Both the position numbers and the translations under genes were made by a program. Positions 9,397 to 32,947 of a stretch of 33,182 nt of DNA are shown in pieces. Origin of the DNA: Candidatus Zixiibacteriota bacterium (GTDB lineage Bacteria; Zixibacteria; MSB-5A5; GN15; JAAZOE01); contig DAOUTW010000049.1 of assembly GCA_030668485.1 (NCBI GenBank), forward strand, positions 1 to 33,182, given 5' to 3'. The notes beneath the pieces are model-generated. The model saw only the letters and a list, made by a program, of their open reading frames with translations, was not told the DNA's origin and did not search any database. Every line of letters begins with the position of its first letter. Within the stretch, counting starts at the first letter, position 1.

Positions 9397-11223
9397 TCAG
9401 TTGGGCCGGTCTAAATGATCAAGGATAAACTGCGCCAGCTTTTTGGGGACACCCCTGACTGCGGAAATTTCTTCTACTGTGGCCTCTTTAATCTTCTTCA
9501 CCGATCCGAAATGCTTTAGTAGGGCGTTGCGTCTTGCGGGTCCGATTCCGGGGATATCATCCAATTCTGATTTGACGGTGCGCTTGGATCTTAACTTGCG
9601 ATGATACGATATCGCGAAGCGGTGCGCTTCATCACGGACACGTTTCAATAAATTCAAGGCTGGAGATGTTTTGGGGATCGATAACGGATCCGATTTGCCC
9701 GGGACAAACACTTCCTCCAAACGCTTGGCCAAACCAATCACCGGTTGTCGCTCAAGCTCGAACTTCTTAAGCACCTCACTGGCCCCTGCCAGTTGGCCTT
9801 TGCCTCCATCTACCATCATAAGATCAGGCAGGGGCAATGCCCCTTTCTTGCGAGCCTCAACATATCGAGTGAAGACCTCACGCATAGCGGCGAAATCATC
9901 CTGCCCCTCAACTGTCTTGATCTTGAAATGACGATATTCAGATTTCTTCGGCTTGCCTTTCTCGAAATATACAAGCGACGCCGCCTTGTCGGTCGCCCCC
10001 AGGTTGGATATATCAAAGCAACTGATTGTCAACGGCGCTCGCTCCAGTTTCAATGCCTTCTGCAAAGCCGCTGCTGATCCGGGAACCCGTTCCTTGTATT
10101 TTTTCTTCTGTATCAGCATTTCATTGAGTAGCAGCCGGGCGTTCGCCTCAGCCATTCCAACCAGTCGATGCTTCTCCCCGATCTGTGGCAAAACCATTCG
10201 GACTTTTAATCCTTTAGCCTTCGACAACCATTTTTCCAGCAGCTTCGCTTCATCGACTTCGCATGGCAGGTAGATTTCTTCAGGTAGATTTTCGAGATGA
10301 TTGTAATATTGTTTGAGGAAGCCAGAAAACAACTCGCCGTCGGTCAAATCGACCTCAACCTTGATCGGCAAATCCTGACGCCCGATCAAGATCCCCTCGC
10401 GGATCTGCATCACCACCGCCACCGCATCGAGGTTATCGCGAGCACAGGCGATCACGTCACGATTTATATATTCGGCTGAATCGACTTTCTGTTTCTGGCG
10501 GACCTTCTCCATCGCCTCGATCGTATCGCGCAGCTTGGCGGCCTTTTCAAATTCCATCTCCCCGGATGCCGTTTCCATCCTCTGCCATAAATCTTTGATC
10601 AGGTTTGTCTGGCGTCCGGAAAGAAACATAACCACCGCATTGACATGCTTTTTATATTCCTTTACCGATTCCAGATCGACACAAGCCCCGGCACAACGCC
10701 CGATATGATAATCGAGGCACACTTTATATTTGCGTCCTGTCGGCGATGGTATTTCAAAGTTGCAGGAACGAAGGCCGAAATGCCGCATCAGGAATTTCAG
10801 CGTCCGCCGCATACTGACCGAACTGGTATACGGCCCGAAATACCTCGCTCCATCCGGCAAAACTCTGCGCACCACCATAAGGCGCGGAAACGGCTCATTG
10901 ACGGTCAGCTTTAGATACGGATAACGTTTGTCATCCTTCAGGTTGACATTATAACGAGGCTTATGCTCCTTGACGAGGTTTGCCTCAAGGATCAACGCCT
11001 CAATCTCGGAATCGGTGACCAGCAGATCGATATCGGCGATTTTGGACACCATTGTAGCTGTCCTGGGGTGAGTCTGCCCCCGGCTGTTGAAATACGAACT
11101 GACCCGGTTCTTGAGATTCTTGGCTTTGCCGATATAAATAATCTTCCCGTTTTTGTCCTTCATCATATAGACGCCCGGCTTGCGGGGAAGATTGGTCGGC
11201 TTGTATGGCTGCTTGGTCTTCAT
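9397..11223 (-). CDS. uvrC: UvrABC excinuclease subunit C
   Basis: UvrC makes the two incisions around a DNA lesion in nucleotide excision repair. The protein is 608 residues from the ATG at 11223, close to the family norm of 610; a TTG six codons upstream is the alternative, and neither has a clear ribosome site. It has the GIY-YIG domain (GVY at 17-19, YIG at 30-32, then GKAKNLKNRVSSYF), a four-cysteine-type region CNFE...CLDYHIGRCAGAC, a UVR motif with MEFEKAAKLRDTIEAMEKV, the RNase-H-like endonuclease (CFDISNLGATDKAASLV, MMVDGGKGQL), and a terminal helix-hairpin-helix pair (DDIPGIGPARRNALLKHFGS). All expected domains are present in order. Confidence 0.97.
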   Translation of the reverse strand: MKTKQPYKPTNLPRKPGVYMMKDKNGKIIYIGKAKNLKNRVSSYFNSRGQTHPRTATMVSKIADIDLLVTDSEIEALILEANLVKEHKPRYNVNLKDDKRYPYLKLTVNEPFPRLMVVRRVLPDGARYFGPYTSSVSMRRTLKFLMRHFGLRSCNFEIPSPTGRKYKVCLDYHIGRCAGACVDLESVKEYKKHVNAVVMFLSGRQTNLIKDLWQRMETASGEMEFEKAAKLRDTIEAMEKVRQKQKVDSAEYINRDVIACARDNLDAVAVVMQIREGILIGRQDLPIKVEVDLTDGELFSGFLKQYYNHLENLPEEIYLPCEVDEAKLLEKWLSKAKGLKVRMVLPQIGEKHRLVGMAEANARLLLNEMLIQKKKYKERVPGSAAALQKALKLERAPLTISCFDISNLGATDKAASLVYFEKGKPKKSEYRHFKIKTVEGQDDFAAMREVFTRYVEARKKGALPLPDLMMVDGGKGQLAGASEVLKKFELERQPVIGLAKRLEEVFVPGKSDPLSIPKTSPALNLLKRVRDEAHRFAISYHRKLRSKRTVKSELDDIPGIGPARRNALLKHFGSVKKIKEATVEEISAVRGVPKKLAQFILDHLDRPN

Positions 11224-11291
11224 CTCATCGATAATTAACAAAAATATATATCGATGGTGCTACTAATTTTTACGCTGGGATATGGCCGGTT

Positions 11292-12171: not shown

Positions 12172-13041
12172 ATGAGTCATTTATATTCCATACCACCTCG
12201 CATTCTAACCATACTGTTCATCGTCATTATCGTTCTTATCTCAGCTTCCGGTTGTCTGGCGCAATCAGATCCCCCCCGGCCTGTCCTGATTCTTTACGCC
12301 TTCAGCACCGAGGGTGAATTGTTATCACAGGAGATGACGATTCAGGATAGCATAATTATTCTTGGACGCACCGTATATACAGGCCAGCTGGCAGGCAAGG
12401 ATATTGTCCTCGCCGAATCGGGTGTGGGAATGACCAATGCCGCCATGACCACTCAGCGGATGATCGACGATTTCAATCCCCGGGGAGTCATCTTCTCCGG
12501 CATCGCGGGAGCCATCGACAGCAGCGTTCATATCGGCGACATTGTCGTCTGCCGGCAGTGGCAGACGCATGATTATGGTTATCATGGAAAAGACGGCTTT
12601 GTCGTCAATTCGATCAAAATCTATGACGCGAGCGCCGACAGCCTCGTTCGAGCAAAGCAATTTATTACCGATAAAGATTTTTTCTCTACGGCGGAAAGCC
12701 TGCCCGATGACGATATCCCATTGGGCAAAATCGGCGAACGGTCACCGAAAATATCGGTCGGTGGAACCGGAGTCAGCGGTAATTGCTTTATCGACAGCCG
12801 CGAAAAACGGTTATGGCTTTCTGAAAACTTCAATGCTCTGGTAACCGACATGGAATCGGCTGCGGTGGGTCAGGTCTGCGGTGTCAATGGCCTCCCTTTT
12901 ATTGTCTTCCGCTCCGCTTCTGATCTGGCAGGTGGTTCCGGTTCGGAGACGGCCGACGATGAATTGGAACAATTCTTCCGCATCGCCGCCGATAATTCAT
13001 CGAAGGTAGTAATGAAATTTTTATCGGATTTGAAAAGATAA
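12172..13041 (+). CDS. Exported MTA/SAH-nucleosidase-family lipoprotein
   Basis: The family hydrolyses the glycosidic bond of methylthioadenosine, S-adenosylhomocysteine or related nucleosides. All three catalytic positions of MTA/SAH nucleosidases are visible: the N-terminal acidic residue (STEGE, E47 or E49), M227-E228 in the TDMESAAVGQVC helix, and D251 in FRSASDLAGG. The GIAGAIDSSVHIGDIVV block is also typical. Unlike the usual cytoplasmic enzyme, this one has a signal sequence with a lipobox-like SASGC at 24-28, so it should be a lipoprotein acting outside the inner membrane. Length is 289 residues, of which about 260 are enzyme. The last 110 bp occur again, detached, at 15.06 and 18.04 kb. 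The substrate could be an extracellular nucleoside. Confidence 0.8.
   Translation: MSHLYSIPPRILTILFIVIIVLISASGCLAQSDPPRPVLILYAFSTEGELLSQEMTIQDSIIILGRTVYTGQLAGKDIVLAESGVGMTNAAMTTQRMIDDFNPRGVIFSGIAGAIDSSVHIGDIVVCRQWQTHDYGYHGKDGFVVNSIKIYDASADSLVRAKQFITDKDFFSTAESLPDDDIPLGKIGERSPKISVGGTGVSGNCFIDSREKRLWLSENFNALVTDMESAAVGQVCGVNGLPFIVFRSASDLAGGSGSETADDELEQFFRIAADNSSKVVMKFLSDLKR
12931..13041 (+). repeat. Repeat copy A: intact 3' end of the nucleosidase gene
   Basis: This segment encodes the final GGSGSETADDELEQF helix through the stop codon. It matches copy B (15057-15187) and copy C (18040-18138) in the same orientation. The 20-nt core TTCTTCCGCATCGCCGCCGA is identical in all three (12973, 15125, 18073). 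Most differences between A and B/C in the first part are synonymous. Confidence 0.85.
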
Positions 13042-13051
13042 TGCAAAAGAA

Positions 13052-13078
13052 GCGAGGACCGGCATGACCGGTCCCCGC
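13052..13078. terminator. Hairpin between convergent genes
   Basis: The stem GCG-A-GGACCGG pairs with CCGGTCC-C-CGC (one mismatch) around a CATGA loop, 10 bp after the nucleosidase stop codon and 46 bp after the convergent IPTL-CTERM gene. The flanking T-tracts are weak on both strands, so termination efficiency is uncertain. Confidence 0.6.
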
Positions 13079-13124
13079 CTGTTGTTATTCACCACAATTA
13101 ACAATCAGTTCTTCCGCATATTAC

Positions 13125-14039
13125 TCAGGCAACCACTTTTTTTCTTCGACGCATTACGATCCACAAGGCCGATGCAATCAACAAGCCCACCAGGATAATC
13201 ATGCCCCATTCGGTTAATGCGGGCACCGCGTGCAGTTCCTCCTCATGTCCGTCTCTGAATTCAGAGATTTCCGGATCGGAGTTCGGCATTATATATTCCA
13301 TCTCCCCAACCACATAGATATAACTGTTTTGCATGTTGGGAATGTCTACCAGATTAACAATCATCGAATCCCCGTGGAAAATATCTCCCTGAACAAAATC
13401 CGACGCAATTGGCTCCATTCCTTCTACCACCGCGGAATCCCACTGAAGGTCAATCTCATACCATTCCGATGAACGGTAAAAGGTCAGATCGTTCATATAC
13501 AAATCGTCCGATGCGTCCAGATTACGGAATATATATTGCGTGTTATGGGTATTGGCTTCATCGTTGAATTCCACATTCTGGGGAAATTCAAATCCGTTAT
13601 CGGGCGCGCCTTCCCTGTTCACTCCCTCGTCATAACTCCACTCCACATTTACAAGCTGCAAGAAGTTCCACTTATTTAATTCTGCCTCGGCGTCAATGCG
13701 AATGGTGACTCCGGGAAGAATTATGATATTGTCGTAACGGATATCCACCCGCCAGACCTCGCCCTTTACATTCGTATGCGGCGTATCAGTCCTGGTTCCT
13801 CCAATGTTTGGCGTTGTACCGATAGTATAACTTATCATCCAATAATCTTCCTTCTCACTCGGAGGCACCTGGACGGTAAAAGTCAGGTCGGTCGCAGTCC
13901 TGCCCTGCGAGTCGCTGTTGGTTACGTTTTTGGAGGTTGATACTTTTACGGCCTGTGCAGGAGTCGCCGAAATAAGCAAAACCGCCGCCAGTAACAGCAG
14001 GACGCCAAAATGACCAAAGATATTTATTCTGAATTTCAT
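13125..14039 (-). CDS. Exported protein with IPTL-CTERM sorting tail
   Basis: The 304-residue protein has an N-terminal signal peptide (1-30, ending ATPAQA), a beta-rich body without a recognised domain, and a C-terminal tripartite tail: PALTEWG at 273-279, a transmembrane helix at about 280-295 and RRRKK at 297-301. That tail is the IPTL-CTERM type recognised by exosortase H-like enzymes, so the protein is probably moved to the outer surface and cleaved. The matching sortase is not in this window. The start has GGGAG seven bases upstream. It lies 117 bp downstream of the membrane-protein gene at 14157 and probably shares its promoter. Together they form the cargo between repeat copies A and B. 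Confidence 0.8.
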   Translation of the reverse strand: MKFRINIFGHFGVLLLLAAVLLISATPAQAVKVSTSKNVTNSDSQGRTATDLTFTVQVPPSEKEDYWMISYTIGTTPNIGGTRTDTPHTNVKGEVWRVDIRYDNIIILPGVTIRIDAEAELNKWNFLQLVNVEWSYDEGVNREGAPDNGFEFPQNVEFNDEANTHNTQYIFRNLDASDDLYMNDLTFYRSSEWYEIDLQWDSAVVEGMEPIASDFVQGDIFHGDSMIVNLVDIPNMQNSYIYVVGEMEYIMPNSDPEISEFRDGHEEELHAVPALTEWGMIILVGLLIASALWIVMRRRKKVVA

Positions 14040-14156
14040 TTTTTATTCTCCCTTTAGTACTTCCAAAAGACACGACTATCGTTGCGAATTCGCCCCAATG
14101 CCGGACAAAAACCCGCAGGCAATAGCTTTAGGCATTTTATAAAATCATTCGGAATA

Positions 14157-14843
14157 TCAATTCTGAGGAGGGGCCCGAGGCGTTGCGAATCTATAACGGG
14201 CTTCCTGTGACAGTGGTGTATCAGCGGGAGAGCAAGGCCGCCCAATACGTTCTATGTGTAATTCTGCGCCTGATTGAAGCGCATCCATTACTTCTTTTAT
14301 GAGAATAAGAATGAGAAGGTTGGTGAGCATAATGACGAAGGATACCATCAGCATCCCGAACATTGTCCCGACTCGCATGATAAGTCCGGAGCTTTCCTGA
14401 GGGAAAGCCAGGATTTGATCCACGAAAGCAATTTGATTTAGAGTGTATTCCAGCGGCAGCCACAAAACGGCAATAAAAATCGCATTCAGCCCGATATGCC
14501 GGGCGATGCGATTTACCGTAGCGGCATAAACTGCAAACAATAGGGAAAGCGCCAATAGCTTGAAAACCATATTCGCCGATAAAACCCATGAGACGGGAGA
14601 AGCTATTACGAAGCAATACGATCCGGCCAGCAATGCGCCGAGAATAATAGATTCCGAAAACCTGACATTAACCACCCGCCACAGAAAGGGAATCAGGGCA
14701 AAGAGCGAAAGAAACCACGCCTGGGGATAGAAATGAGGAGTCGCCAGTAATAATGCCGAAATTCCGGCATATAGAAAATGTTCCGCCATACGGGTGTGCC
14801 GGTCGGTATTAGCATATAGATTACTTTTTTTGCCCACAGACAC
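14157..14843 (-). CDS. Multi-pass membrane protein resembling the N-terminal half of apolipoprotein N-acyltransferase
   Basis: The start is most likely the GTG at 14843, with GGAGGAGG seven bases upstream (228 residues); a TTG start seven codons earlier overlaps that site. Residues from about 20 to 190 form five or six membrane helices. The run LLLATPHFYPQAWFLSLFAL and the later WLPLEYTLNQ resemble the first membrane helices of Lnt. The catalytic nitrilase domain of Lnt is absent: the protein ends in a short polar tail after the last helix. It could be a stand-alone Lnt-N-type protein, a decayed Lnt, or an unrelated family. It sits upstream of the IPTL-CTERM gene, so a role in that protein's export or modification is possible but unproven. 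Confidence 0.55.
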   Translation of the reverse strand: MSVGKKSNLYANTDRHTRMAEHFLYAGISALLLATPHFYPQAWFLSLFALIPFLWRVVNVRFSESIILGALLAGSYCFVIASPVSWVLSANMVFKLLALSLLFAVYAATVNRIARHIGLNAIFIAVLWLPLEYTLNQIAFVDQILAFPQESSGLIMRVGTMFGMLMVSFVIMLTNLLILILIKEVMDALQSGAELHIERIGRPCSPADTPLSQEARYRFATPRAPPQN

Positions 14844-14980
14844 CTGACAACCTCCTCCGCTCAATCCAGTAATGAATTAAGCCAAGGCCATATTATTAAA
14901 GGCGGTGATAGGGCCTTTTCTTTCGATGTGATTCCGGCTAAGATGTGATGTGATGCGCGATGCAACCCCGTTATAGTAAA

Positions 14981-15009
14981 TTAATAATAATTATCTGTTA
15001 TTTTGTCAA
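14981..15009 (-). promoter_or_regulatory. Promoter of the membrane protein/IPTL-CTERM unit
   Basis: Minus strand: perfect TTGACA (15004-15009), 17-bp spacer, TATTAA (14981-14986). Transcription would start near 14974 and run into the gene at 14843. The remaining intergenic sequence (14865-15056) shows only the partial inverted repeat AAGGCC...GGCCTT. Confidence 0.6.
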
Positions 15010-15056
15010 GGACTTTATTGACCGTTCTACATTCTCTTACCGCCGGCGGCTAATAC

Positions 15057-15187
15057 GTTCATCTGCCTCAGGCTGGGGAGGCGGTGGTTCCGGTTCGGAG
15101 ACGGCCGATGGCGAACTGGAGCAGTTCTTCCGCATCGCCGCCGAGAATTCATCAAAAGTAGTTATATACTTTCTTGAGAAACTATGA
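15057..15187 (+). pseudogene. Repeat copy B: detached 3' fragment of a nucleosidase gene
   Basis: In frame it reads RSSASG, then GGGGSGSETADGELEQF, RIAAENSSKVV and ends FLEKL-stop. This parallels the last 40 residues of the lipoprotein nucleosidase (from its RSASDLAGG). The catalytic Asp is lost and nothing of the enzyme body remains upstream, so it cannot be a functional nucleosidase. An open frame continues upstream to 14960, but that part is unrelated. It lies between the two cargo modules. Confidence 0.8.
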
Positions 15188-15289
15188 GGTCAGACTTGTA
15201 AAAAAGCCTGACCCCATTGAACAGCATCATACTCCGGACTTTATCCGGTATATAAAATCCGTCATCAATTTACCGGACAATCGATGAAT

Positions 15290-17635
15290 CTAGCTGATAT
15301 CCCGTTTCCTTTTTCGGGGCGCCAAAACCCAGGTCACGCGACCGACTTCAACGTCCTTATAAAGCTGCCGTACATAAACCGAGTACCTGTTTTTTCGGAA
15401 TGCTTTCGGAATATGGACCAGCAATTTCAATTGCATTCTGAACCTGGCCGGGAAAAGCGCCCTGCCAAATATCTTTTTTCCGCGCGGATTCACCGGAATC
15501 CTGACCATTCGGCGTTTTCTGTCGATTTTCACAAAAGGAGATTTTTCATTAAGAAATTCGCGGATATGCAGCGGACCCTCAAGCATAATTCGCGCTCCTT
15601 TCGGTAATCTCGCCACAATCTCAAGCTGCATCCGACGGGCACGGTCAGGCGCTCCCGGGGCCAGGAAAGGCAATTCTACAAACTTATCGGGATCGCCCGA
15701 ATCGGGTTCGTTGTCAACGACATTGAAGTTTTTCCAGGTAACATTGTTGTTTTCCCGAATAAAATTGCGGAAATTGGTCCAGTTCATCATATCCGCCAGC
15801 CCGGGAGCCGGATCCTGATCGTTTCCGATTAACCCGACCAGGCAGTAATGACCCTTGGCCGGTATGGCGGCCTTCGGCCAAACGATAGCATCCGAAACCG
15901 TCAACAACTCGCCGACCGGCACATTAGGTATCGTCACCGACCCGATCAGAGTCCAGAGATCTGGCGTGACCAAAGTGGATGGCGGCGACCAGTAGACTGT
16001 GGCAACAACATTATTAGCGTCTGATCCGCCGCGGTTGCGCACTCGAACATAAATGTAATTATCCTGACCCAGTTCCACTTCATGCCCCAGCATATTGTCG
16101 TTCTCGGTCCCGCTCCCCTCTCCATAAGTCGACTGGGGATCGGCCACCGCCGCTGGGACCGGGATAATATCAGGACTGGACGAAATCGAACCGGTATGAG
16201 GATCACCGACATCGCCGACATTATCGCGAATGTAGATATCCTGGGTCAGGCCAAGAATATCTCCTTCAATTATAGCACGAAGATCGGGCATGACTCCGAT
16301 TAGATCCGCTGCTGGATCATCGGAGGCAGTTCCGGTGTCAGGATCGCTCAGGATACCTCGTACCTGAAAGGGATTAAACCGATAACCCAGACTCGCCTCG
16401 GCAATACCTTGAACAATTGCCGCCGCCCCGGTAATAATCGGGGAAGCGCTTGATGTTCCGTTAAAATCAGTCCTATACATGGTTGTCGATCCGGTGTTAT
16501 TGGAATCTGTCGTGTCGACATTCTCACCCCAGCCATAGCAATCGATACGGCTGCCGAAATTGGAAAATCCCATTCGCGTGTGAGGGACCGTCGAGCTTGA
16601 CGCACCCACCATAATCGCACCCGAATCGCGGAAATTCACTGATGCACGGTTGAATATGGAATTTCCGCCCGAATCAGTGTATGTATCCAAATCGTTCTCG
16701 CCGTTACCAGCCGCCGCGACGACTACGATGCCAACCGCTGTTGCCAAACGTATGGCGTCGAATTCGGCATCGAGTACTTCAATTGGCATCTTCAACCAAC
16801 CGGTTATCGAAAGCTGGGCTTCCAGTAAGAGAATATCTCCAAAAGATAGATTGGCAATGGCTGCAAATACGGCATCAGGCCTATTGCTACCAAAATAGGA
16901 AACGACATTTATCGATGCGACATTGGGAACGATTCCGATACATCCCAAAGTATTATCGACGGCGCAAATTTCTCCCAGTACAGCGGTACCGTGGTAGCGA
17001 GAGCTATTGGCAATAGTCCCACTAAGTAGAGACGCTCCTTGAGCGCTCAAATCCTCATGATTTAATGTCCAGCCTTGCTCCAGATCGATAATATTGATTC
17101 CTGAGCCATCACCACCGGCAAAACCCACACCTCCGCCGCGGGGCCATGCGAATTCGGCATCGATACCATCCGGAGCCGGATCAAGATAGCCCTGACTTCC
17201 CCACCTGGGATCATCGGTTGGATCTATTTGCGGATCACTACCCGGAGGATCATAATAGGCGTTTTGCACCGACTCCCAGGACCGGAACATTTTGGCCAGT
17301 CCTTCAGGGTCTTCTCCGGGAGGACAGTCCACCATAAAATAGGTGAAGAAATTCGGCGGACGATATTTACGATCGCGTTCTGTTGCCGTATCAACTATCG
17401 CCTGAATTTTTTTGGGCTCCAGCTTGGTAAACATCCGCTTCATGGTGATGCCGGGATATTCACTCGCCAAACGTTTCCACGGCCCCAGGCGATATTTCTC
17501 AATGTATTCTTCGGTCTTATCAACATAGGGAATTTCCACATAATCATGAAACTTCACCACTACTCTGGGATGGTAACCGGGTGGTTTGGTTTTTAGTTTC
17601 CTTTTGGTACGGGGTGGAGTTTTCTTCTTGTTCAT
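15290..17635 (-). CDS. Subtilisin-like serine protease (S8 family) with large C-terminal region
   Basis: The 781-residue protein starts at the ATG at 17635, five bases after GGAG. Residues 20-125 resemble a protease propeptide. The catalytic domain (about 140-460) shows the Asp in NIIDLEQGW (about 184), the His in YHGTAVLGEI (215), the oxyanion Asn in AAAGNGEN (about 311) and the Ser in FNGTSSASP (395). All are present, so it should be active. Residues about 465-640 look like a CARDB-type beta-sandwich (YIYVRVRNRGGSDANNVVA). A basic tail closes with APRKRKRDIS. No ordinary signal peptide is seen: the N-terminus is MNKKKTPPRTKRKLK with no hydrophobic stretch. Export route is therefore unclear. 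The gene is the sole cargo between copies B and C. Confidence 0.88.
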   Translation of the reverse strand: MNKKKTPPRTKRKLKTKPPGYHPRVVVKFHDYVEIPYVDKTEEYIEKYRLGPWKRLASEYPGITMKRMFTKLEPKKIQAIVDTATERDRKYRPPNFFTYFMVDCPPGEDPEGLAKMFRSWESVQNAYYDPPGSDPQIDPTDDPRWGSQGYLDPAPDGIDAEFAWPRGGGVGFAGGDGSGINIIDLEQGWTLNHEDLSAQGASLLSGTIANSSRYHGTAVLGEICAVDNTLGCIGIVPNVASINVVSYFGSNRPDAVFAAIANLSFGDILLLEAQLSITGWLKMPIEVLDAEFDAIRLATAVGIVVVAAAGNGENDLDTYTDSGGNSIFNRASVNFRDSGAIMVGASSSTVPHTRMGFSNFGSRIDCYGWGENVDTTDSNNTGSTTMYRTDFNGTSSASPIITGAAAIVQGIAEASLGYRFNPFQVRGILSDPDTGTASDDPAADLIGVMPDLRAIIEGDILGLTQDIYIRDNVGDVGDPHTGSISSSPDIIPVPAAVADPQSTYGEGSGTENDNMLGHEVELGQDNYIYVRVRNRGGSDANNVVATVYWSPPSTLVTPDLWTLIGSVTIPNVPVGELLTVSDAIVWPKAAIPAKGHYCLVGLIGNDQDPAPGLADMMNWTNFRNFIRENNNVTWKNFNVVDNEPDSGDPDKFVELPFLAPGAPDRARRMQLEIVARLPKGARIMLEGPLHIREFLNEKSPFVKIDRKRRMVRIPVNPRGKKIFGRALFPARFRMQLKLLVHIPKAFRKNRYSVYVRQLYKDVEVGRVTWVLAPRKRKRDIS

Positions 17636-17814
17636 CACGTCTCCTTCCACAGTTAATAATTTAATGCCTTCAATTCGGCCGTTTACTCAAGGTTGTGCTC
17701 TGATCCCCTTTTAGTTATGGCACAGCCACAAATATCCCGAATCGGTGGTGCAGATATTCCAGTTGATTTTATAATGCTGATTGGTGTCAAGCAAAAATTA
17801 TATTTGATATCCAC

Positions 17815-17843
17815 TATATAATTGGATTTAGTTCCATCGTCAA
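17815..17843 (-). promoter_or_regulatory. Promoter of the S8 protease gene
   Basis: Minus strand: TTGACG (17838-17843), 17-bp spacer, TATATA (17815-17820). It implies a leader of about 170 nt before the protease start. Confidence 0.55.
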
Positions 17844-18039
17844 GTACTTTTAAGCTTTTTGAAATATAATAATCTAATAGATTCCGCCTGGTAAACCCGG
17901 GGTCCTTACCTTTACAGACCTGTGGTCTGACCTGCCATTCGCTACGTCGCTCGGCTCGCAGCGAATAAACAGGATGGGTTCATTCATCCACGGCTAAAGC
18001 CGTGGTGATCTATCTGCGACCGCATAAATCGGTTCGCAG
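17844..18039. other. Intergenic stretch with short inverted repeats
   Basis: Three perfect or near-perfect hairpins stand in a row: CAGACC-tgt-GGTCTG near 17920, CCACGGCT-AA-AGCCGTGG near 17985, and ATCTGCGACCG with its near-complement CGGTTCGCAGAT near 18012-18041. No gene is apparent. The hairpins lead straight into repeat copy C. Confidence 0.5.
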
Positions 18040-18138
18040 ATCCGGAGCCCTGCCGATGGCGAACTGGAGCAGTTCTTCCGCATCGCCGCCGATAATTCGT
18101 CGAAAGTGGTAGTGAGTTTCCTGATGGGACTGAATTAG
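18040..18138 (+). pseudogene. Repeat copy C: second detached 3' fragment of a nucleosidase gene
   Basis: In frame it reads ADGELEQFFRIAADNSSKVV, then VSFLMGLN and a TAG stop at 18136-18138. It is identical to copy B over 41 nt beginning at GCCGATGGC and differs from copy A there mainly at third codon positions. Homology fades upstream at about TCCGGAG (18040). Like copy B it retains only the C-terminal helix of the enzyme. Confidence 0.8.
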
Positions 18139-18228
18139 GATGCGGTTGAAAGACCGTCTCTTTTTGTGTTAAGAATCATTCTTTGTCTTGTGCTATTAAT
18201 TTGGTAAAGGCTGGGTGCCTCGGTATTT

Positions 18229-19353
18229 TCATAAATGGTCTTTAATGTTAGCAAGTCTGTCTTTTAGTTTGGCGATGAGCTCGTCATAATTCTCATATGA
18301 TTCGTGTTCATAATGCGCAAAATCAAAAGCCAGCTTCTTCCCTCCTTCTCTTCTTGCTCTATTGAAGGTCAAAATTGTTATTTTTTCTAAGGCCATCGCC
18401 ATTCCAAATTCGTACATCACATTAGTATTTTCGGTTGTGACATCAGCGATCACCACCTTCGCTCTAACTATATGACTATATATTTTCCCCTCAAGGTAGT
18501 TTGGTAATTTATTGTCATCGTTCTTAAGGCAGGCAATTCCAAGTGTCTCCTTCACAACGGGGATGAATACCTTTCCCATGATATCCTGCGGGAATTCCTC
18601 TTCCTTGAAGGGCATTAGGACAAATGCGAATGGTTCACGATTGTACTGACCCAAATCTATCAGTTTGAAATATTTGTGATTTGATGGGTCTATTTGGCTC
18701 ACCCCCATTTGCTCCGCCAGCAACTGTCCGAGTTCTACCCCAATTTCTCTTTTCCTTAGGCCGTTAAGTCTGTAAGGTGCCATGCGAACTTGGTTCCTGT
18801 TAATCCTGTACTGCTTGCCGGCCCCATCAACCAGATCCACAAAGCCTTCGTTCTTCAAGCTCCCCATCCACTTCTTTATCTCATCCCAAGTTGCGTGAAA
18901 GTTGTCCTCCAGGTCGGGTCGCCCTATTAATGGCTCCGCATCGGATTCGAAAAATACATACATGAATCTCAATATCTTTTCCCGGAGCGCCGCTCCCGCC
19001 AATAATGGCTGTTCGTTCATTATCCTTTGGTCATCCGGCGTGAAGTCGATTTCCTTTTGGACCGGATTATTCTGTATTCGCCACAATGCATACTTGATAG
19101 TCTCATTATGCATCTTATAAAGCTTTCTTTCGTTATCTTCGCCATACGGAGACTTCGCAAGATTGTATTCGACTCTGACAATATAGCGCGATTCCTGCTG
19201 ATCTGCAGGCCTGGAGACATCAAAGTAGTACTTGTACGGCCATAATAGGAGCTTATCCGAGGAACTCGGTTGCTGTTGTATGCACGTCACATTGAATCTT
19301 ATCGCCCTGTCTTCTATTACAGTTAGCACACACCCGAGCCAAATATCATCCAT
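18229..19353 (-). CDS. Protein with nucleoside-deoxyribosyltransferase/TIR-like domain, possible defence effector
   Basis: The 374-residue cytoplasmic protein starts at the ATG at 19353, six bases after GTGAGG. Residues 1-110 are unrecognised. Residues about 115-195 look like a winged-helix region (REKILRFMYVFFES, IKKWMGSLKNEGFVDLVDG, KQYRINR). Residues about 240-340 match the fold of nucleoside 2-deoxyribosyltransferases and TIR-like nucleotide-binding domains: FVLMPF at 244-249, then VIADVT and N-T-N-V-M-Y-E315-F-G, the block that carries the catalytic Glu in that superfamily. Such domains occur in nucleotide-degrading immune proteins, but also elsewhere. It follows the nlpC gene by 39 bp and may be read from the same transcript. 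The exact activity is unknown. Confidence 0.6.
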   Translation of the reverse strand: MDDIWLGCVLTVIEDRAIRFNVTCIQQQPSSSDKLLLWPYKYYFDVSRPADQQESRYIVRVEYNLAKSPYGEDNERKLYKMHNETIKYALWRIQNNPVQKEIDFTPDDQRIMNEQPLLAGAALREKILRFMYVFFESDAEPLIGRPDLEDNFHATWDEIKKWMGSLKNEGFVDLVDGAGKQYRINRNQVRMAPYRLNGLRKREIGVELGQLLAEQMGVSQIDPSNHKYFKLIDLGQYNREPFAFVLMPFKEEEFPQDIMGKVFIPVVKETLGIACLKNDDNKLPNYLEGKIYSHIVRAKVVIADVTTENTNVMYEFGMAMALEKITILTFNRARREGGKKLAFDFAHYEHESYENYDELIAKLKDRLANIKDHL

Positions 19354-19392
19354 ATGATGCCTCACAAAATAGTACTGCTATGATGTACTCCC

Positions 19393-19914
19393 TTACTCCA
19401 ACACCCGTCTTGCGCCGAGGTAGCGCTTCTTGTAATATTTGTCACTCAGGCTGGAGATAATAATGCCATTGGATGTTGACGCATGTACAAACTCACCAAA
19501 GCCGACAAAGATCCCAACATGCGACACCCCTCGCCCGCCGGTGTCGAAGAAGACCAGGTCGCCGAAATATAAATCGCCACCCTGTACATGACGACCGGCC
19601 TTGAAAAGATTTTCTGTCGTGCGCGGAAGATGAACCGAGGCATACTCATTGAAAATCTCGCCGACAAATTCCGAACAATCGTAACCTTTCCGGCCCTGCC
19701 CCTTGCCCGCATACGGCTTGCCAAGATAACGGTCGATCACCTTCCCCATTGCAATCGGATCGACGGCATAGGAAGATGCATGGATAGGTTGCTCGGCTTT
19801 CTTTTCAGCCTTCTGTTTTCCCTCGTCGGTGTGGTACCCGCCGCCATAGCGCGGTTTCCCCGCACATCCGGTCAAAAGGGCGATGATGACTATGCCTAGA
19901 TAAAGATATTTCAT
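19393..19914 (-). CDS. NlpC/P60-family lipoprotein, cell-wall peptidase
   Basis: The family are cysteine peptidases that cut peptide cross-links in peptidoglycan. The 173-residue protein starts at MKYLYLG (19914), with the lipobox LLTGC (Cys17) placing it on a membrane as a lipoprotein. The catalytic set is complete: Cys80 in YDCSEFV, His132 in VSHVGIFVG and His144 in EFVHASTSNG. A charged Lys/Glu/Gln linker (about 30-45) separates the anchor from the domain. The upstream ubiA-like stop codon lies 4 bp ahead of this start, so it ends the uppS-cdsA-ubiA-like chain as an envelope gene. Confidence 0.9.
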   Translation of the reverse strand: MKYLYLGIVIIALLTGCAGKPRYGGGYHTDEGKQKAEKKAEQPIHASSYAVDPIAMGKVIDRYLGKPYAGKGQGRKGYDCSEFVGEIFNEYASVHLPRTTENLFKAGRHVQGGDLYFGDLVFFDTGGRGVSHVGIFVGFGEFVHASTSNGIIISSLSDKYYKKRYLGARRVLE

Positions 19915-19919
19915 AATGG

Positions 19920-20825
19920 TCAACTCAATTCCGGGTAAACAATTCCAAACCGTCTTTTATAATAGATTCTTGTTAAAATGATTGTCAACAAAAGAAGTAC
20001 CGGGTAAAACAGAAAATGTGCACCGGCCAGAAGCGATAAAAGCAAAATCGGCAGCTTGCATGCCAGCATCAATACTTTATACTTAAATGAAAATACCAGG
20101 TAGGTAACGAATAAGGCAGTAACGGCAGCGACAATCGTCATTTCATAATTGCCGACCCATAACGATGACGCCACTGTCGCCAGAAGGGTTAGCAGCGCCA
20201 GCCATATCGCACCGCGAGGACTGAGAATAACGGTCAGCGTCCGCTTGCCGGTGGCAAGATCGCCGTCATGATCGGGAATCGTGGTCAGGATATAACCGGT
20301 CGCTATGGCAAGGAAATAAGGTACAATTGATAAGTAGGGAATTTCCGTTGAAAATGACCTCGATATCATCCACGGAATGAGAAAACCATACGCAGTGGCA
20401 TTGGCTATCAAACCACCGACCGGACTGTCTTTCAATCGCACCCCTGGGATGGAATAACATATGCCCAATCCGGCAATCGCAACCATCGCCCGAATCGATT
20501 CCGGACAAAGTAGAAATGTTATCGCTGCGCCGGCGAGGGTGAGCATAATGTAATATGTCCACGCTGTGCTCAATGAAATAATTCCGCGTGGCAGGAAAAA
20601 CAGTTTGTCATTGATCCGGTCCGATTCGATATCGTATATCTGATTGAAGACATACGTGCCTTTGAAAATCAACGTCAGGGTGACAAGGTTAATAATGGCA
20701 GTACGGCCGGGGGAAACATTGAGGTATCCGATGCTTGAAGTCGTTGACAAATAATGAAGGTAAACCGTCCAGACCGGAATAATCAGTATCGGACGGCCGA
20801 AGAAGATTAAATCCGGAAATTTCAC
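19920..20825 (-). CDS. UbiA-family membrane prenyltransferase
   Basis: These enzymes attach a prenyl chain to an aromatic ring or other acceptor within the membrane. The 301-residue protein has about eight hydrophobic helices. It shows the first Asp motif in the form N-Q-I-Y-D-I-E-S-D followed by RINDK, and the second as IPDHDGDLATGKRTL. Both are intact. The acceptor cannot be assigned: quinone-ring precursors, or glyceryl phosphate as in digeranylgeranylglyceryl-phosphate synthase, are possible. The start overlaps the cdsA end by 4 bp (ATGA), tying it to phospholipid synthesis genes. The prenyl donor may come from the ispA-dxs genes nearby. Confidence 0.85.
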   Translation of the reverse strand: MKFPDLIFFGRPILIIPVWTVYLHYLSTTSSIGYLNVSPGRTAIINLVTLTLIFKGTYVFNQIYDIESDRINDKLFFLPRGIISLSTAWTYYIMLTLAGAAITFLLCPESIRAMVAIAGLGICYSIPGVRLKDSPVGGLIANATAYGFLIPWMISRSFSTEIPYLSIVPYFLAIATGYILTTIPDHDGDLATGKRTLTVILSPRGAIWLALLTLLATVASSLWVGNYEMTIVAAVTALFVTYLVFSFKYKVLMLACKLPILLLSLLAGAHFLFYPVLLLLTIILTRIYYKRRFGIVYPELS

Positions 20826-30331: not shown

Positions 30332-30368
30332 ACACTGTACCCCACCGGAACGGTGGGTTTATAATTTG
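30332..30368 (+). repeat. Direct repeat R1, first copy: hairpin with T-rich tail
   Basis: A 37-nt unit is repeated exactly at 31507-31543. It holds a 7-bp stem CCCACCG/CGGTGGG with a GAA loop, followed by TTTATAATTT. It lies 98 bp downstream of the LTA-synthase-like gene and could act as its terminator. Confidence 0.85.
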
Positions 30369-30560: not shown

Positions 30561-30772
30561 TACAGTTATTATTCTACGGTTTTTTACCGATTTCGGCATC
30601 GGGATTATGCTTTAGCGATGATCACACCAGAGAACCACATCTGTACTAATGGGAAACAGCATCAACGGCTAAGGAAATTATTCCGCTATGGGCGGATGAG
30701 CATACCACGTTGAATTATTGTTTTCCGCAGTCATCGGTAATGCCTATCACAATTGCACGAAGGAGGTCACAA
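30561..30772 (+). other. Long, possibly structured 5' leader
   Basis: About 210 nt of noncoding leader precedes the IPTL-CTERM gene. ATGCT (near 30607) can pair with AGCAT (near 30697), enclosing branches that include GGAA-atta-TTCC and CCGC-tatg-GGCGG. The pair CTAAG...TATGG inside recalls a tetraloop receptor as found in c-di-GMP-I riboswitches, but other conserved positions of that class are not convincingly matched. Confidence 0.25.
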
Positions 30773-31507
30773 ATGATCTGCAAAAATCTTATACAGGTAA
30801 TTGTCATTATCCTTGCAGTAAACTGTACCACAACCGGCACATCAGCGGAGGTGCCACCCAAAAACATTCTGCTCCTGGATTATAACTGCGGCGGAGTAAG
30901 ATGCACGACCTGGCTAGTCACAAGTAAAGTATGTGCGGATTTCGAATGGAATCCGGAACTGGATGTGAACTGCTCATTGTTTACGCAATCTCCCCCACCA
31001 AATCCGCTGGAGGAATACGATCGCATGGCAATCACAGCCCATTTGTTCGATAATGAGGTTTATATTAATGCGGAAATATACGACGATATCGATCACGATC
31101 CATCGGGATTGCTGTTTACCCATACCCTGGCCAGCACCGCGCCATATTCGGCCGATGGCGATGTCATGATCGGTGTCAATGTCTCGTCTTCAGGCGACCT
31201 GGTTTCGCTGCCGCTGCCCTTATCCGGCTCGTTCAAATCGACAGGTGGATTATCAACTGGCGACTATTTGATTAAACATAGGTCCGTAGAATCCGAGCCC
31301 ATATTGTATCTACAATTTGCAGTCATTGATGAGTCTACGGCCGAGCTGATTAGAGCAGATACTCTTTCATATTCCGTAGAATCCTTGCTTACAGGGCAGA
31401 TCCCCACCCTCACCGAATGGGGACTGATAATATTCGGCGTATTGTTGGCGGGATGGATGGGATGGATTATCATACATCGGCGAAAGAGGGTGATGGCCGG
31501 CTTCTAA
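30773..31507 (+). CDS. Second exported protein with IPTL-CTERM sorting tail
   Basis: The 244-residue protein starts at the ATG at 30773, six bases after GGAGG; an in-frame ATG 63 bases earlier lacks such a site. The signal peptide covers about 1-25. The body is beta-rich, with several cysteines in its first part (NCGGVRCTTW, VCADFEW, DVNC) and no recognised domain. The tail IPTLTEWG at 210-217, a membrane helix (218-234) and HRRKR is the canonical IPTL-CTERM signal. This protein is a probable surface substrate of an exosortase located elsewhere. The stop codon touches the start of repeat R1. Confidence 0.8.
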   Translation: MICKNLIQVIVIILAVNCTTTGTSAEVPPKNILLLDYNCGGVRCTTWLVTSKVCADFEWNPELDVNCSLFTQSPPPNPLEEYDRMAITAHLFDNEVYINAEIYDDIDHDPSGLLFTHTLASTAPYSADGDVMIGVNVSSSGDLVSLPLPLSGSFKSTGGLSTGDYLIKHRSVESEPILYLQFAVIDESTAELIRADTLSYSVESLLTGQIPTLTEWGLIIFGVLLAGWMGWIIIHRRKRVMAGF

Positions 31508-31543
31508 CACTGTACCCCACCGGAACGGTGGGTTTATAATTTG
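31507..31543 (+). repeat. Direct repeat R1, second copy: probable terminator
   Basis: Identical over 37 nt to 30332-30368. The first base of the repeat is the last base of the IPTL-CTERM stop codon. The stem CCCACCG/CGGTGGG and the following T-rich tail can end that transcript. Confidence 0.85.
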
Positions 31544-31607: not shown

Positions 31608-31698
31608 CTCAGGCCAAAATCGCGTTTGTGCCCGGTCCGCCGCGGCGGATCCACATCTGCCGGGCAATCGGGCACATGTGGACATGTGCCGCGCACAG
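31608..31698. repeat. R2 second copy followed by palindromic repeat R3, first copy
   Basis: CTCAGGCCAAAATCGC (31608-31623) repeats 30440-30455. R3 (31625-31698) shares 28 exact bases (31651-31678) with 32784-32811, and its GGCACATG-tgga-CATGTGCC hairpin. Its left arm is replaced by the palindrome TCCGCCGCGGCGGA. Confidence 0.8.
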
Positions 31699-31753
31699 AA
31701 ATCAGTTAAGATTTATTTTCTGCACCTTCCCAGCGTCTTTATCGCCCTGATAT

Positions 31754-32766: not shown

Positions 32767-32832
32767 TTGTGCCCGGCAGATGTCCACATCTGCCGGGCAA
32801 TCGGGCACATGCGGACATGTGCCATGCACAAA
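32767..32832. repeat. Palindromic repeat R3, second copy: double hairpin
   Basis: A perfect 13-bp stem TGCCCGGCAGATG (32770-32782) with a 4-nt loop is followed by GGCACATG-cgga-CATGTGCC (32804-32823). The double-hairpin layout resembles REP/BIME elements. It shares 28 exact bases with the copy at 31651-31678. Confidence 0.85.
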
Positions 32833-32947
32833 ACAGTTTTCTAACAAAAATGTTAGAAACTGTACATCTTCAGATGATTTGGACAAATTGATATTAAAAG
32901 TTAAGACATAGTTCTTGCTCGGGCAATAGCAATTCTCCCACAGCAAG

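What the first reader, a model, noticed from the sequence alone, without database searches (positions are those of the whole stretch)
12931..18138. Three in-line copies of a nucleosidase gene's 3' end bracket two cargo modules
Copy A is the intact end of the exported nucleosidase gene (to 13041). Copy B (15057-15187) and copy C (18040-18138) are detached fragments on the same strand, each running in frame to a stop. A 20-nt core is identical in all three. B and C are identical over 41 nt and differ from A mostly at synonymous sites, so the B/C type diverged as functional coding sequence before truncation. Between A and B lies a membrane protein plus an IPTL-CTERM gene; between B and C lies an S8 protease. 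Both cargo modules are on the opposite strand and have their own TTGAC-type promoters. This matches what is expected if elements repeatedly integrated at the 3' end of a conserved gene, each displacing the old end. No integrase is visible. Erosion of a tandem array of paralogues would give a similar result.
Basis: partly seen in the sequence, partly recalled or inferred. Interest (0 to 1): 0.75.

Follow-up and report, generated by a model that had tools for sequence, protein, structure and literature searches.

The report
Stacked leftover ends of a nucleosidase gene
In an uncultivated Zixibacteria genome, foreign genes appear to have been inserted twice at the tail end of an exported nucleosidase gene, each time giving the gene a new tail and leaving the old one stranded downstream, as is known from bacterial toxin loci but here at an ordinary enzyme gene.

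Summary
The 3' end of an exported nucleosidase gene (PNP_UDP_1 family, 12172-13041 +) occurs three times in line: A intact, B about 15059-15187, C about 18052-18138. No other copy exists in the 4.5-Mb genome. The organism belongs to Zixibacteria. Family relatives show the order uvrC, (nucleosidase), TIR-like gene, NlpC. One (G006) has nucleosidase directly beside the TIR-like gene, the window layout without cargo or fragments. Copy C sits where the ancestral 3' end belongs. None of the 44 class genomes with a strong match has a second full-length copy, which argues against tandem paralogues. The copies are mosaic: A and B are identical only over codons 254-261, B and C only over 261-273 (13/13 codons against 2/14 beyond, p=6e-6); relatives show no such gradient. 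I read this as two successive recombinational insertions into the gene's 3' end, each displacing the old end. No recombinase lies in the array, and the identity blocks differ in position, so homologous single crossover or homology-facilitated illegitimate recombination fits better than an integrase. That resembles sequential displacement at Rhs and T6SS loci. No same-genus genome was available, so mobility is inferred.

The parts
12172..13041 (+). Exported nucleosidase gene (PNP_UDP_1; MTA/SAH nucleosidase-like); its 3' end from 12931 is copy A
   Evidence: Pfam PF01048 E=3.8e-40; best NCBIfam match PRK05584 E=7.5e-46, below its cut-off
12931..12956 (+). A=B exact block (26 nt, codons 254 to start of 262), proposed crossover tract of the younger insertion; matches 15083-15108
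   Evidence: Codon comparison, Fisher p=0.0045 against the rest
13050..13080 (.). Hairpin/terminator A between copy A and the convergent IPTL-CTERM gene
13125..14039 (-). Cargo 1: IPTL-CTERM protein gene
   Evidence: PF18203
14157..14864 (-). Cargo 1: LNT_N-like membrane protein gene, recurrent neighbour of IPTL-CTERM genes in the class
15059..15187 (+). Copy B: displaced 3' end of the nucleosidase gene (secure from 15083)
15104..15144 (+). B=C exact block (41 nt, codons 261-273), proposed crossover tract of the older insertion; matches 18052-18092
   Evidence: 13/13 codons identical against 2/14 beyond, p=6e-6
15188..15213 (.). Hairpin B (no good T-run) between copy B and the convergent S8 gene
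   Evidence: Fold z=-3.9
15290..17650 (-). Cargo 2: S8 (subtilase) family protein gene
   Evidence: PF00082 E=2e-13; best match elsewhere in the family and own genome about 40%
17877..18028 (.). Dispersed palindromic repeat abutting copy C; other copies on own contigs C42 (152 nt), C134 and C25 (52 nt)
18052..18138 (+). Copy C: displaced 3' end, at the ancestral position next to the TIR-like gene
   Evidence: synteny
18142..18157 (+). Terminator C
18229..19365 (-). TIR-/nucleoside deoxyribosyltransferase-like gene, ancestral convergent neighbour
   Evidence: PADLOC TIR Effector E=2.4e-8; relative at the same place in G006 and G001
19393..19923 (-). NlpC/P60 gene, conserved right anchor
9397..11241 (-). 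uvrC, conserved left anchor

Best explanation
The array records two successive insertions of foreign DNA into the 3' end of one nucleosidase gene by short-homology recombination. Each incoming piece carried a diverged nucleosidase 3' end and a gene convergent to it. A crossover inside a short block of exact identity joined the host's 5' part to the donor's 3' end, so the gene stayed intact. The host's old 3' end, with its own terminator, was left beyond the cargo. The older event brought the S8 gene and left copy C beside the ancestral TIR-like neighbour. The younger event brought the IPTL-CTERM and LNT_N-like pair and left copy B. The likely route is a RecA-type single crossover with a circularised fragment, or homology-facilitated illegitimate recombination (HFIR), without a dedicated integrase. 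Shown: the copies, their mosaic identity, the relative without cargo, the absence of full tandem copies in relatives, and the absence of cargo 1 in the family. Inferred: the order of events, the donors, and the recombination pathway.
For: (a) G006, same family: nucleosidase directly followed by a convergent TIR-like gene, then NlpC-ubiA-cdsA-uppS-frr-pyrH, the window order without cargo or fragments. In G001 and G002, which lack the gene, uvrC lies next to TIR-like+NlpC or to NlpC alone. So both anchors are ancestral and C lies at the ancestral 3' end. (b) The class scan of 132 genomes has 44 genomes with a strong match (E below 1e-60) and none with a second full-length copy. (c) Mosaic: A=B 8/8 codons in 254-261 against 11/26 elsewhere (p=0.0045); B=C 13/13 in 261-273 against 2/14 beyond (p=6e-6). 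In the 30 closest pairs of full genes, codon identity is flat over these stretches (0.46, 0.46, 0.39). (d) Each copy has its own distinct hairpin and convergent neighbour. (e) The LNT_N-like gene is absent from the six other family genomes, but the pair recurs elsewhere in the class. (f) G003 keeps uvrC-nucleosidase but has a different convergent gene (cupin) at the 3' side. (g) A, B and C form one clade (support 89), with B+C 87.
Against: The sequence is short (27-34 codons), so mosaic inference is limited, and A-B is only moderately significant. The blocks were picked after seeing the data. No same-genus genome was available, so neither an intermediate with one cargo nor a donor was seen. 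In most same-genus pairs tested elsewhere in the class the 3' flank is conserved, so the gene is not a general hotspot. No other clean case was found in 1.36 Mb of the same genome. Gene conversion between paralogues could mimic identity blocks.
Confidence: 0.55

Rival explanations
1. Tandem paralogues: the gene was once duplicated into a row of three, cargo entered between the copies, and two copies decayed to their 3' stubs, which were kept because their hairpins serve the convergent neighbours as terminators.
For: B and C diverged from A mostly at synonymous sites, so they were functional coding sequence. Each has its own hairpin. B and C group together.
Against: None of the 44 genomes with a strong match has a second full-length copy. 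No 5' or middle remnants are present, only the last tenth of the gene twice. Identity blocks between neighbouring copies need extra gene conversion.
Confidence: 0.22
2. Site-specific integration: small elements with an att site mimicking the gene's 3' end were inserted twice by a tyrosine or serine recombinase acting in trans, giving a CIME-like or island-like stack.
For: The layout (restored 3' end, cargo, displaced end) is that of attL-cargo-attR stacks, and a 20-nt core is common to all copies. The genome encodes seven Phage_integrase-domain proteins elsewhere.
Against: No recombinase lies on the contig. The identity blocks of the two events are shifted and share only GCCGA besides the conserved core. 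The left arms of B and C are coding sequence with synonymous changes, unlike an attP arm. No copy was found in viral contigs with a degenerate pattern.
Confidence: 0.13
3. Insertion driven by the dispersed repeat: the 152-nt palindromic element at 17877-18028 or ectopic recombination between its copies brought the cargo, and the nucleosidase stubs are by-products.
For: The repeat abuts C and has three other copies in the genome.
Against: No such repeat was found around B. Other copies lie next to terminators of unrelated genes without such stubs in view.
Confidence: 0.06
4. Assembly artefact of a metagenome bin that chained alleles from several strains.
For: The genome is a fragmented assembly (139 contigs), and the family is known here only from such assemblies.
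Against: Both anchors of the array match the ancestral order on one contig. There is no N in the window, exact repeats are only 26-41 nt, and contamination is 1.3%.
Confidence: 0.04

Closest known systems
Sequential displacement of T6SS effector-immunity modules in Vibrio cholerae (Kirchberger et al. 2017, PMC5361080)
   Same: Successive insertions anchored by homology in a gene shift the old 3' ends downstream; the authors propose HFIR and no integrase.
   Different: There the 3' part is a changing effector domain followed by an immunity gene under selection. Here the displaced part is the same conserved enzyme tail and the cargo is convergent and unrelated.
Rhs and CDI loci with orphan C-terminal regions (discussed in PMC5361080; Koskiniemi et al., PMC3967940)
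   Same: Constant 5' gene part and strings of orphaned 3' regions.
   Different: No toxin or immunity function is recognised here, and the stubs are only about 90-130 nt.
HFIR and single crossover of circularised linear DNA in E. coli (PMC3240628)
   Same: Most of the lacZ integrants tested there carried a duplication of part of the target (109-950 bp) from single crossover, the same kind of product as a duplicated gene end.
   Different: Laboratory construct with long homology, against 26-41 nt exact blocks inside diverged homology here.
CIMEs, genomic islands and ICEs at the 3' ends of genes (from general knowledge)
   Same: Gene end restored by the element, old end displaced beyond the cargo, stacking possible.
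   Different: No integrase, no fixed crossover point demonstrated, very small cargo.

Membership tests
Sequential 3'-end displacement by homology-anchored insertion (Rhs/T6SS type) | In-line orphan 3' ends downstream of an intact gene | tested here: met
Sequential 3'-end displacement by homology-anchored insertion (Rhs/T6SS type) | Homologous anchor: identity switch inside the gene end | tested here: met
   Mosaic blocks, p=6e-6 and 0.0045, flat null in relatives; caveat of short length
Sequential 3'-end displacement by homology-anchored insertion (Rhs/T6SS type) | Cargo is new relative to related genomes | tested here: met
   LNT_N-like and IPTL-CTERM genes not found in the six other family genomes; S8 matches there no better than about 40%
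Sequential 3'-end displacement by homology-anchored insertion (Rhs/T6SS type) | Displaced part is a polymorphic toxin/effector domain with immunity gene | tested here: not met
   The gene is a PNP_UDP_1 nucleosidase and the stubs are its conserved tail
Integrase-borne element stack (ICE/CIME/island) | Recombinase gene in the element | tested here: not met
   No match in any scanned ORF of the array; Phage_integrase hits lie only on other contigs
Integrase-borne element stack (ICE/CIME/island) | Same crossover core at all junctions | tested here: inconclusive
   20-nt core shared by all three, but pairwise identity blocks are shifted
Integrase-borne element stack (ICE/CIME/island) | Excision or transfer | not testable with these tools
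   Needs cells or reads
Decayed tandem paralogues | Tandem full-length copies in relatives | tested here: not met
   0 of 44 genomes with a strong match
Decayed tandem paralogues | Remnants from other parts of the gene | tested here: not met
   tblastn finds only 3' parts

The most novel reading that the evidence does not exclude
The 3' end of an ordinary exported enzyme gene acts as a recurrent, integrase-free docking site: convergent cargo genes travel between related Zixibacteria together with a nucleosidase 3' end and shared terminator, and short-homology recombination stacks them like cassettes.
Probability: 0.15. Interest if true: 0.65.

Novelty: new variant of a known kind. Interest (0 to 1): 0.4.

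Why it matters
Serial displacement of gene ends is best known from competition toxins, where selection for new toxins and old immunity genes drives it. A case at a plain enzyme gene would show that homology-anchored insertion can stack unrelated cargo without toxin selection or an integrase. The stranded ends would be a record of gene acquisition in an uncultivated phylum.

Tried and rejected
A first genome-contig scan with the single protein found nothing; the alignment scan gave the Zixibacteria homologues. Two apparent lone 3' fragments in other genomes (G106, G029) are scaffold gaps of N. A degenerate pattern for the tail found nothing in viral contigs. A survey of 1.36 Mb of the same genome for other detached gene ends found none clean, so this is not a genome-wide process. 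A general 3'-side hotspot was considered: in same-genus pairs the 3' flank is conserved in most, not conserved in genus g37 and only weakly matched in g68, so this was not claimed. The fragments as small genes were rejected for lack of start codons (C none, B one weak). The promoter claim was not confirmed beyond chance by the scan.

Full report
WHAT IS THERE. The window is contig C78 of a 4.5-Mb genome (99.95% complete, 1.3% contamination) from Zixibacteria; named relatives are Candidatus Zixiibacteriota assemblies. The nucleosidase gene (12172-13041 +) has a signal-like N-terminus and a PNP_UDP_1 domain. Its best named model is the MTA/SAH nucleosidase PRK05584, below that model's cut-off. 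Its 3' end recurs at 15083-15187 (probably from about 15059) and at 18052-18138, same strand, in frame to a stop. A whole-genome search finds only these copies plus one distant paralogue on C4.

SURROUNDINGS. Left of the gene are a SIMPL-domain gene and uvrC. Between A and B lie, on the minus strand, an LNT_N-like membrane protein gene and an IPTL-CTERM gene. Between B and C lies an S8-family gene on the minus strand. To the right of C are a TIR-/deoxyribosyltransferase-like gene and NlpC-ubiA-cdsA-uppS. Each of A, B and C is followed by its own, unrelated hairpin and then by the 3' end of a convergent gene. The repeating unit is therefore nucleosidase 3' end, hairpin, convergent gene.

RELATIVES. 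G006 of the same family has nucleosidase, a convergent TIR-like gene, NlpC, ubiA, cdsA, uppS, frr and pyrH with no cargo and no stubs. G001 has uvrC, TIR-like, NlpC without nucleosidase, and G002 has uvrC, NlpC. G003 has uvrC and nucleosidase, then a different convergent gene (cupin) and others. So uvrC and NlpC bracket a variable slot, and copy C sits at the place of the ancestral gene end. In 132 genomes of the class, 44 have a strong match (E below 1e-60) and none shows a second full-length copy or a true detached 3' end; the two apparent exceptions are scaffold gaps.

MOSAIC. Codon by codon, A and B are identical over codons 254-261 and then differ at 15 of 26 codons. B and C are identical over codons 261-273 and then differ at 12 of 14. 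Fisher tests give p=0.0045 and p=6e-6. In the 30 closest pairs among 33 full-length genes, codon identity is 0.46, 0.46 and 0.39 in these three stretches, so there is no built-in gradient. In two successive displacement events each pair of neighbours should be identical exactly in the crossover tract and diverged outside it; this is what is seen. Paralogue decay does not predict it without extra gene conversion. The tail tree puts A, B and C in one clade (support 89) with B+C inside it (87), apart from every other genus. The donors, if any, were therefore close relatives that have not been sampled.

MECHANISM. I infer: event 1 placed the S8 gene and left C; event 2 placed the IPTL-CTERM/LNT_N pair and left B; the current gene carries the newest tail A. 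No recombinase gene was found in the array, and the seven Phage_integrase-domain genes lie on other contigs. The crossover tracts are shifted. Homologous single crossover with a circularised fragment or HFIR is therefore preferred. In E. coli, single crossover of circularised linear DNA produced target duplications of 109-950 bp, about ten times more often than HFIR (PMC3240628). In Vibrio, repeated homology-anchored insertion of T6SS modules shifts old 3' ends downstream, and strings of orphaned Rhs 3' regions have been explained in the same way (PMC5361080).

CARGO. The LNT_N-like/IPTL-CTERM pair recurs in the class: 18 of 28 IPTL-tail matches, in 13 genomes, lie within 3 kb of an LNT_N-like match, but the pair is missing from the six other family genomes. 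It is thus plausible acquired cargo. The S8 protein has only about 40% relatives in the family.

LIMITS. No same-genus genome was found, the metagenome collection was not open, the homologous stretch is short, and the identity blocks were noticed before they were tested. The array could also come from paralogues with gene conversion. Nothing here shows that the cargo can still move.

Noticed in passing
window 13125-14864 (-); also own contig C48 and 12 other class genomes: A stand-alone LNT_N-like membrane protein gene is a recurrent neighbour of IPTL-CTERM protein genes (18 of 28 IPTL matches within 3 kb), with a conserved LPLEY stretch; it could be a dedicated partner in processing or anchoring IPTL-CTERM proteins.
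   Followed up: partly
window 18229-19365; L095:12751-13866; L039:1278-2369; L096:40-1176: The gene next to NlpC has an exchangeable C-terminal effector-like domain: TIR-/deoxyribosyltransferase-like in the window, G001 and G006, a true TIR_2 (ThsB-like) domain in G005. It looks like a defence or signalling gene with swapped effector.
   Followed up: partly
window 17877-18028; own contigs C42, C134, C25: A dispersed palindromic repeat (fold z=-5.8); the three other copies end at the same base next to a terminator hairpin, two of them near contig ends.
   Followed up: partly
window 30332-30368, 31507-31543, 31650-31707, 32783-32838: A 37-nt exact direct repeat flanks the second IPTL-CTERM gene (30710-31507), and a 51-nt repeat pair follows it.
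   Followed up: no
G029:C1 and G106:C1 (L046, L144): In two single-contig bins a run of about 100 N lies inside or next to the nucleosidase gene, which makes false 3' fragments.
   Followed up: yes
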